This document shows, piece by piece, positions 13,004-13,350 of a stretch of DNA of 64,000 nt. The stretch comes from Leptotrichia wadei. Its GTDB lineage: Bacteria; Fusobacteriota; Fusobacteriia; Fusobacteriales; Leptotrichiaceae. The notes under the pieces were generated by a model. It made no database searches and was not told the origin of the DNA. It saw only the letters and a program-made list of their open reading frames with translations. The position numbers and the translations under genes were made by a program. The stretch covers positions 1,860,001-1,924,000 of the forward strand of contig NZ_AP019829.2 in NCBI RefSeq assembly GCF_007990545.2, in the 5' to 3' direction. How positions within the stretch are numbered: position 1 is the stretch's first letter; the number at the start of each line of letters is the position of its first letter.

Positions 13004-13151
13004 ATAAAAAAATTTAAATTGTCAATAAAATTTGAAATGTATAGTTTCAGCCCTTAAAATCAATAATAATATATTATCAATTAAAAAAGAGAAAAAAATT
13101 AATCAAAAAACAATTTTGATTTAATGGTGGTTTAATTGTTATAGTGTATAC

Positions 13152-13231
13152 TATATTCAGATCGATTAAAAGATCTGAAACCTCAATTAACCCCCCCTTT
13201 TATGAGACCTCTTTTTTAAGAGGTCTTTTTT
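13152..13231 (+). ncRNA. candidate C-rich small RNA
   Basis: An extended -10 (TGTTATAGT, hexamer 13140-13145) with TTGATT 18 nt upstream could start a transcript near 13152. It would hold a 6-bp hairpin (CAGATC/GATCTG, 13158-13177), an unpaired stretch with seven consecutive C (13191-13197), and end at the 13205-13231 terminator, about 80 nt in all. A single-stranded C-run can pair with Shine-Dalgarno sequences, as known for C-rich regulatory RNAs in other bacteria. It could equally be just the distal terminator of argS. Confidence 0.35.
13205..13231 (+). terminator. strong intrinsic terminator
   Basis: AGACCTCTT / AAGAGGTCT, a perfect 9-bp stem followed by a run of T. It ends either argS transcription or the small RNA proposed just upstream. 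Confidence 0.85.
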
Positions 13232-13350
13232 CATTTTATATTCTAAAATTTACTTGATTTAAGAATTTGGTATCAGAGGGTTCAAACATATTTAAATAAT
13301 TTTATTAAATTAATAACAACAAAATAAAAAAAGAAAAGAGAGGAAAAAAA

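What the first reader, a model, noticed from the sequence alone, without database searches (positions are those of the whole stretch)
13116..13231. Candidate C-rich small regulatory RNA after argS
An extended -10 promoter, a small hairpin, an unpaired run of seven C and a strong terminator fit in about 115 bp. A run of C is rare in this AT-rich DNA and is complementary to the GGAGG-type ribosome sites used here, as in known C-rich sRNAs.
Basis: partly seen in the sequence, partly recalled or inferred. Interest (0 to 1): 0.5.

Follow-up and report, generated by a model that had tools for sequence, protein, structure and literature searches.

The report
Conserved C-rich small RNA of Leptotrichiaceae
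A short gene next to argS very probably makes a roughly 72-letter regulatory RNA whose 22-letter unpaired middle is almost perfectly preserved across most Leptotrichiaceae examined, and its promoter looks like one switched on by a two-component sensor system.

Summary
The locus (sRNA about 13159-13231, + strand) is a single-copy gene in 27 of 33 Leptotrichiaceae genomes examined; its core is in none of the other 65 phylum genomes. The unpaired core AACCTCAATTAACCCCCCCTTT is identical in 26 of 27 copies (one has six C, not seven), although the flanking hairpin and terminator diverge to 38% identity while keeping their pairing. In six genomes of five other genera argS points away from it, and in Sebaldella- and Streptobacillus-type genomes it sits elsewhere, so it is neither mere argS read-through nor a leader of one gene. 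Hfq was found in 0 of 33 genomes. Best reading: a response-regulator-activated, Hfq-independent C-rich sRNA that pairs with ribosome-binding sites, a new family of a known kind. Expression, regulator and targets are not shown; target prediction gave only weak leads.

The parts
13098..13103 (+). half-site 1 (ATTAAT), outermost of an 11-bp-phased array
   Evidence: 4-6 of 6 matches to TTTAAT in 19 of 19 array-type promoters
13109..13114 (+). half-site 2 (AACAAT), weak/degenerate
   Evidence: in phase but only 2-5 of 6 matches
13120..13125 (+). half-site 3 (TTTAAT)
   Evidence: five of six columns invariant in 19 promoters; following spacer variable; with 13131-13136 it forms the only 0-mismatch TTTAAT-N5-TTTAAT in the window
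13131..13136 (+). half-site 4 (TTTAAT), ends 10 bp before the -10, in place of a -35 box
   Evidence: geometry as in CiaR/csRNA promoters (PMC3091779)
13147..13152 (+). -10 element TATACT (TATAAT in most other genera)
13159..13231 (+). predicted sRNA, about 72-73 nt (start inferred from -10 distance and start of hairpin)
   Evidence: covariance model match 13159-13234, 99.9 bits, the model having been built with this copy among 27; fold z -4.55
13159..13176 (+). 5'-terminal hairpin AGATC/GATCT
   Evidence: a 5' helix forms in 27 of 27, with a wholly different sequence in the 4 Streptobacillus-type copies
13179..13200 (+). unpaired core AACCTCAATTAACCCCCCCTTT (seed; ACCTC and C7 motifs)
   Evidence: 22/22 in 26 of 27, 21/22 in one; mostly unpaired in the predicted ensemble, with the 3' edge partly paired in 3 Sebaldella-type copies
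13204..13231 (+). intrinsic terminator hairpin and T tract
   Evidence: 16 variants of the helix, some differing only in length

Best explanation
This is a stand-alone gene for a trans-acting, Hfq-independent small RNA of Leptotrichiaceae. Supported by sequence comparison: a dedicated promoter, a start at about 13159, a 5' hairpin, a 22-nt nearly invariant single-stranded seed carrying two anti-Shine-Dalgarno-like motifs (ACCUC and CCCCCCC), and its own terminator. Inferred: an OmpR/PhoB-family response regulator binds the 11-bp-phased TTTAAT half-sites that replace the -35 box and switches the gene on; the RNA then pairs through ACCUC and/or the C run with G-rich ribosome-binding sites of several mRNAs and mostly blocks their translation, the 5' hairpin and terminator serving for stability. 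In Streptobacillus-type genomes the array is gone and a TTGCAA-N17-TATAAT-type promoter probably makes expression constitutive.
For: Single copy in 27 of 33 family genomes and in none of 65 others of the phylum at up to 1 mismatch. In the scan of genome contigs, 7 of 12 exact hits are from this family and 5 are isolated 17-mers without hairpins, no more than chance would give. Core 22/22 in 26 of 27 copies against 38-40% identity outside it in Streptobacillus-type copies. Both helices keep pairing through sequence change: 4 variants of helix 1, 16 of the terminator. Different genomic contexts, with argS divergent in 6 loci. Array: TTTAAT matches peak at 10, 21 and 43 bp, weakly at 32, before the -10 (with 4 promoters misregistered; corrected); in 8 representative array-type promoters 0, 13, 1, 0, 0, 1, 0 and 0 of 2000 shuffles reach the phased score. 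The published CiaR csRNA search used the same distances, 5 and 10. Hfq 0 of 33. G5-to-ATG sites in this genome 87 against 36 for the reversed pattern.
Against: No RNA data. The half-site consensus and phase were chosen after seeing the sequences, and the promoters are homologous, so the shuffle counts are descriptive. Sebaldella-type and Streptobacillus-type promoters lack the array (660 and 1656 of 2000 shuffles, one promoter each). No regulator was identified, and the promoter pattern is not enriched elsewhere in 13 genus genomes (30 matches, 10 of them the sRNA itself, against 24 for the reversed control). Targets: GGGGGTTAA is not enriched (35 against 66 over 11 genomes), TTAATTGAGGTT with up to 1 mismatch is rarer than its control in 13 of 13 genomes (390 against 705), and the bivalent complement GGGGN{5,9}GAGGTT is rarer too (158 against 303 over 33 genomes; sums). 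G5 sites could simply be ordinary ribosome sites. 6 of 33 family genomes lack it, four of them at least 97% complete and a fifth 92%.
Confidence: 0.66

Rival explanations
1. A 5' leader or attenuator of the downstream gene (13351, short coiled-coil protein) that acts in cis: premature termination at 13204-13227, relieved by a signal.
For: A homologue of the coiled-coil ORF follows in 13 of 27 loci and of the deacetylase in 18 of 27; ACCTC could pair with GAGGT of this terminator (my reading of the sequence).
Against: In the 4 Sebaldella-type loci the next recognised gene is the RlpA-like one, and in the 4 Streptobacillus-type loci none of the window's proteins was matched nearby. The terminator arms change to sequences without that full complementarity in other genera, so no alternative structure is conserved. 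The conserved part is unpaired, unlike a riboswitch.
Confidence: 0.07
2. A protein-binding or sponge RNA: the 22-nt single strand binds an RNA-binding protein rather than mRNA Shine-Dalgarno sites.
For: Invariance of the A/U-rich linker AAUUAA as well as of the two C motifs is stricter than anti-SD pairing alone would need; bivalent targets were not enriched.
Against: C-rich unpaired seeds are reported as mRNA-pairing regions of FoxI, FoxJ, LhrC and RsaE (PMC11005410, PMC4132741; passages). Three of the four Sebaldella-type paralogues keep both C motifs but shorten the linker.
Confidence: 0.13
3. Only a terminator of argS (plus read-through), with the C run incidental.
For: In Leptotrichia argS is co-directional and no other + strand terminator was found between its stop and the sRNA; a 3'-end RNA processed from argS is conceivable there.
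Against: argS is divergent or not found in the flank in 14 of 27 loci, and the promoter is conserved in 19. The core is the most conserved part, the terminator is not.
Confidence: 0.04

Closest known systems
FoxI and FoxJ sRNAs of Fusobacterium nucleatum (PMC11005410: abstract, passages and one section read)
   Same: Same phylum, no Hfq, C-stretch seed used to repress mRNAs; FoxI's C stretch is described as lying in a long linear stretch, as here.
   Different: They are sigmaE-dependent; here the promoter carries phased TTTAAT repeats and a sigma70-type -10. The core of this RNA was not found (at most 1 mismatch) in any of 65 non-family genomes of the phylum.
csRNAs of streptococci (CiaRH regulon; PMC3091779, passages read)
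   Same: Many have two stem-loops with an unpaired anti-SD region between; promoter with a direct repeat at N5 and 10 nt to TATAAT.
   Different: Repeat ends in T, not the G reported as extremely important for CiaR; seed carries C7 and ACCUC; no anti-AUG CAU in the core; different phylum; single copy (extra relatives seen only in Sebaldella-type genomes).
LhrC1-5 of Listeria (PMC4132741, passages read)
   Same: Two-component system (LisRK)-dependent, C-rich UCCC motifs that bind a target's SD region.
   Different: Five copies, motifs also in loops; sequences were not compared.
RsaE/RoxS of Staphylococcus and Bacillus (listings and one mention in PMC4132741 seen; details recalled)
   Same: Conserved C-rich sRNA of low-GC bacteria.
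   Different: No Rfam match of this locus at gathering level; sequences were not compared directly.

Membership tests
C-rich (anti-SD) trans-acting sRNA, as a kind | independent transcription unit with own promoter and intrinsic terminator | tested here: met
   by sequence only: conserved promoter and terminator, argS divergent or not found nearby in 14 of 27 loci; transcription itself not testable
C-rich (anti-SD) trans-acting sRNA, as a kind | conserved unpaired C-rich seed | tested here: met
C-rich (anti-SD) trans-acting sRNA, as a kind | regulates mRNAs by pairing near the SD | tested here: inconclusive
   G5-SD sites exceed the reversed control in 5 of 5 genomes, but longer complements do not
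csRNA (CiaR-dependent sRNA) | NTTAAG-N5-TTTAAG repeat with its G, 10 nt to -10 | tested here: not met
   spacing identical but the repeat is TTTAAT
csRNA (CiaR-dependent sRNA) | dependence on CiaR | not testable with these tools
   regulator unknown
FoxI/FoxJ | sigmaE promoter | tested here: inconclusive
   the -10 is TATAMT of sigma70 type; the fusobacterial sigmaE motif letters were not available
FoxI/FoxJ | sequence homology | not tested
   FoxI/FoxJ sequences not obtained; core absent at up to 1 mismatch from 65 non-family genomes of the phylum
any Rfam 15 family | score at or above gathering threshold | tested here: not met
   none in the window; best sub-threshold match tsr26, 29.8 bits against 141

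The most novel reading that the evidence does not exclude
A two-component system of Leptotrichiaceae acts through one single-copy master sRNA whose whole 22-nt strand, not only the C run, is under near-absolute constraint. It would be a fusobacterial counterpart, of separate origin, to CiaR-csRNA and LisR-LhrC circuits, with the sensor input lost in Streptobacillus-type genomes and the RNA duplicated in Sebaldella-type ones; the two motifs at fixed distance could clamp SD and start codon of the same mRNA at once, as the best predicted pairing among the sites examined in this genome (a ToxN-type toxin mRNA) would.
Probability: 0.25. Interest if true: 0.65.

Novelty: new member of a known kind. 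Interest (0 to 1): 0.5.

Why it matters
Leptotrichia and Streptobacillus are oral and zoonotic bacteria for which my searches of the held papers (for Leptotrichia, 84 for Streptobacillus, 13 and 63 for Fusobacterium) listed no study of an sRNA of their own; only the listings were looked at. An RNA with a seed kept almost unchanged across the family is a natural entry point to their post-transcriptional regulation without Hfq. It also offers a test of whether response-regulator-driven C-rich sRNAs arose separately in Fusobacteriota and Firmicutes.

Tried and rejected
The 43 hits in the 40 stretches that I fetched showed no C run with an adjacent terminator; one (L261) has a strong hairpin 40 nt further on. 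Most look antisense to G-runs of genes (my reading). The four hits in G001, three of them clustered, were among these. The Sebaldella-type paralogues are also in that list but came from the covariance model.

Weak covariance-model hits outside the family: G036 (E 1.7e-5) and G047 show a C run before a terminator but no shared core; not counted. The G060 and G027 hits look like chance; the other hits up to E 0.1 were not inspected. L029 (second hit of G003) was dropped as chance; L001 and L002 are this genome itself.

Missing copies: for the six family genomes without the gene, the loci around argS were searched with the model, filters off; nothing (best E 0.55).

Regulon: the promoter pattern in 13 genus genomes gave 20 matches besides the sRNA against 24 control matches. 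I looked at 19 of the 20; four precede a lipoprotein-like gene (two genomes), an outer-membrane-like gene and an autotransporter-like gene, names judged from the letters only. No enrichment, so not used.

Targets: 77 of 87 own G5-ATG rows (five double listings and five copies of one repeated 19-mer left out) and 40 of 101 from G017 (only part of that list is printed, and I left out some of it by eye) were fetched; 39 of 117 had an ORF of at least 50 aa with an upstream in-frame stop, 22 of them in this genome. Five pairs of similar proteins have G5 sites in both genomes: RadC, an Abi_2 protein, an SSB-like protein (named from the letters), and two distant pairs of about 25% identity, one of them ABC-3 permeases; no functional theme. 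TTAATTGAGGTT is rarer than its control.

Rfam at gathering level, plasmids and phages: no match.

Full report
What was checked. The window lies in a 2.34-Mb genome. I take it for a Leptotrichia: genomes of the same genus include contigs whose lengths equal those of named Leptotrichia records (2,261,073 bp, L. hongkongensis; 208,106 bp, oral taxon 879). In the same way genus g11 holds a contig of Streptobacillus notomytis length and g9 one of a Sebaldella MAG; I call these genomes Streptobacillus-type and Sebaldella-type. The stretch after argS contains a hairpin, a single-stranded stretch with seven C, and a terminator. The predicted 73-nt RNA has a folding energy of -19.1 kcal/mol against a shuffle mean of -8.8 (z -4.55). 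C7 by itself is not improbable: about 0.7 such runs are expected on the + strand.

Conservation. A BLAST search found the element in 27 of 33 family genomes. A 17-base core pattern with up to one mismatch occurs exactly once in each of 27 of 98 phylum genomes, all in this family and all exact. In genome contigs 12 exact hits were found: seven in this family (two Leptotrichia, Streptobacillus notomytis, a Sebaldella MAG, three other MAGs) and five scattered ones without hairpins. In the 27-row alignment, which includes this genome and one 99% identical relative, 22 consecutive columns, AACCTCAATTAACCCCCCCTTT, are identical in 26 rows; one row has six C. Outside the core, identity to this genome falls to 57-66% in Sebaldella-type copies and 38-40% in Streptobacillus-type copies.

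Structure. Folding each copy shows the same layout: 5' hairpin, unpaired core, terminator. Helix 1 is AGATC/GATCT in 22 copies, with a G-U variant in one. In the four Streptobacillus-type copies it is replaced by an unrelated 7-8-bp helix, itself with an A-U to G-C change in one of them. The terminator helix has 16 variants, some differing only in length. For three Sebaldella-type copies the 3' edge of the core can partly pair with the terminator tail.

Independence. In the 13 Leptotrichia loci argS precedes the sRNA on the same strand. In six genomes of five other genera argS is transcribed away from it. In four Sebaldella-type and four Streptobacillus-type loci argS was not found in the flank (1.5 kb where the contig allowed; two of the Streptobacillus-type loci are cut short). 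In G026 argS lies about 5 kb away and in G030 some 650 kb away. In G026 the RNA lies between an RlpA-like gene and what I read as a ferredoxin-oxidoreductase operon; in G030 between an ORF that I take from memory to be YaaA-like and a 722-aa outer-surface-like ORF. Downstream genes in the window are a short coiled-coil ORF (only a sub-threshold Pfam match), a polysaccharide deacetylase, an RlpA-like protein and a short-chain dehydrogenase.

Promoter. In all 27 copies a TATAAT-like hexamer begins 12 nt before the hairpin. In 19 copies (all except Sebaldella-type and Streptobacillus-type) there is no clear -35 hexamer, but TTTAAT-like half-sites end 10, 21, 32 (weak) and 43 bp upstream of the -10. 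In the two proximal sites most columns are invariant while the N5 spacer between them varies. The phased score is reached by 0-13 of 2000 dinucleotide shuffles in eight representatives, but by 660 and 1656 of 2000 in one Sebaldella-type and one Streptobacillus-type promoter. The consensus was read off these same sequences, so these counts describe rather than test. Direct repeats of a hexamer with an 11-bp period are typical of OmpR/PhoB-family response regulators (established knowledge), and the csRNA search in PMC3091779 used TTTAAG, five, TTTAAG, ten, TATAAT (passages). Streptobacillus-type copies have TTGCAA, 17 bp, TATAAT (TACAAT in one) instead.

Chaperone. An Hfq profile found nothing in 33 of 33 family genomes while recognising 5 of 14 control genomes, among them E. 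coli and B. subtilis. F. nucleatum is likewise reported to lack Hfq and ProQ (PMC11005410, section read).

Paralogues. The covariance model found, besides the 27, further RNAs in Sebaldella-type genomes. Three have AACCTCATAACCCCCCCTTT and a fourth CTTCATAACCCCCCCTTT, each with its own terminator. They keep the C run, and in three cases ACCTC, but shorten the linker and put ACCTC partly in a hairpin.

Targets. Sites GGGGG-N3-11-ATG number 87 against 36 for the reversed pattern in this genome, and exceed their controls in all five genomes tried. That is compatible with C-run targets but equally with ordinary G-rich ribosome sites. Longer complements are not enriched: 390 against 705 (13 genomes), 35 against 66 (11 genomes), 158 against 303 (33 genomes); sums. 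Among the 22 own sites kept, the strongest predicted pairing is with the start of a ToxN-type toxin gene (Pfam PF13958): GGGGGAATTATGAGGTT can pair with both motifs, duplex -22.9 kcal/mol against a median of -8.6 and a best of -14.8 for 55 starts in the window; the 22 were picked for G5, so they start with an advantage. Co-folding gains about 19 kcal/mol over the separate folds. One such gene cannot explain family-wide conservation, so this is a lead only.

Mechanism. Shown by comparison: a conserved, structurally constrained, independent RNA gene with a nearly invariant unpaired seed. Inferred: that it is transcribed, that a response regulator drives it, that it represses translation by pairing at ribosome sites. 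FoxI/FoxJ, csRNAs and LhrC are reported or proposed to work this way, which makes it the leading reading; the strictness of the 22-nt constraint leaves room for a protein partner.

Novelty. No Rfam family reaches its gathering score, and no plasmid or phage record matches. Literature searches listed nothing on this RNA; the two main papers on FoxI (recalled) were not held. I file it as a new member of a known kind: a new sRNA family, with a promoter input that differs from the sigmaE input of the fusobacterial C-stretch sRNAs I could read about.

Noticed in passing
L170, L171, L173, L174 (genomes G024, G026, G023): Sebaldella-type genomes carry additional C-rich sRNA-like genes with related seeds (AACCTCATAACCCCCCCTTT or CTTCATAACCCCCCCTTT) and their own terminators.
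   Followed up: partly
L169 (G036:C2:289210-289286) and L175 (G047:C8:20109-20185): C run followed by a strong terminator in genomes of another family of the order; possible unrelated C-rich sRNAs.
   Followed up: partly
G000:C1:178818 (L285): ToxN-type toxin gene (type III toxin-antitoxin family) just after a terminator-like hairpin, whose ribosome site and start codon could pair with both seed motifs of the sRNA.
   Followed up: partly
window 13032-13060: A second promoter-like match (TTGAAA-17-TAAAAT, 10 of 12) between argS and the sRNA array; conservation not examined.
   Followed up: no
window, + strand: Eight runs of five or more C but no run of five or more G in 64 kb.
   Followed up: no
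L239, L240 (G001): Four long C runs, three within 3 kb, in a small genome without this sRNA; perhaps poly-G tracts of phase-variable genes read from the other strand.
   Followed up: no
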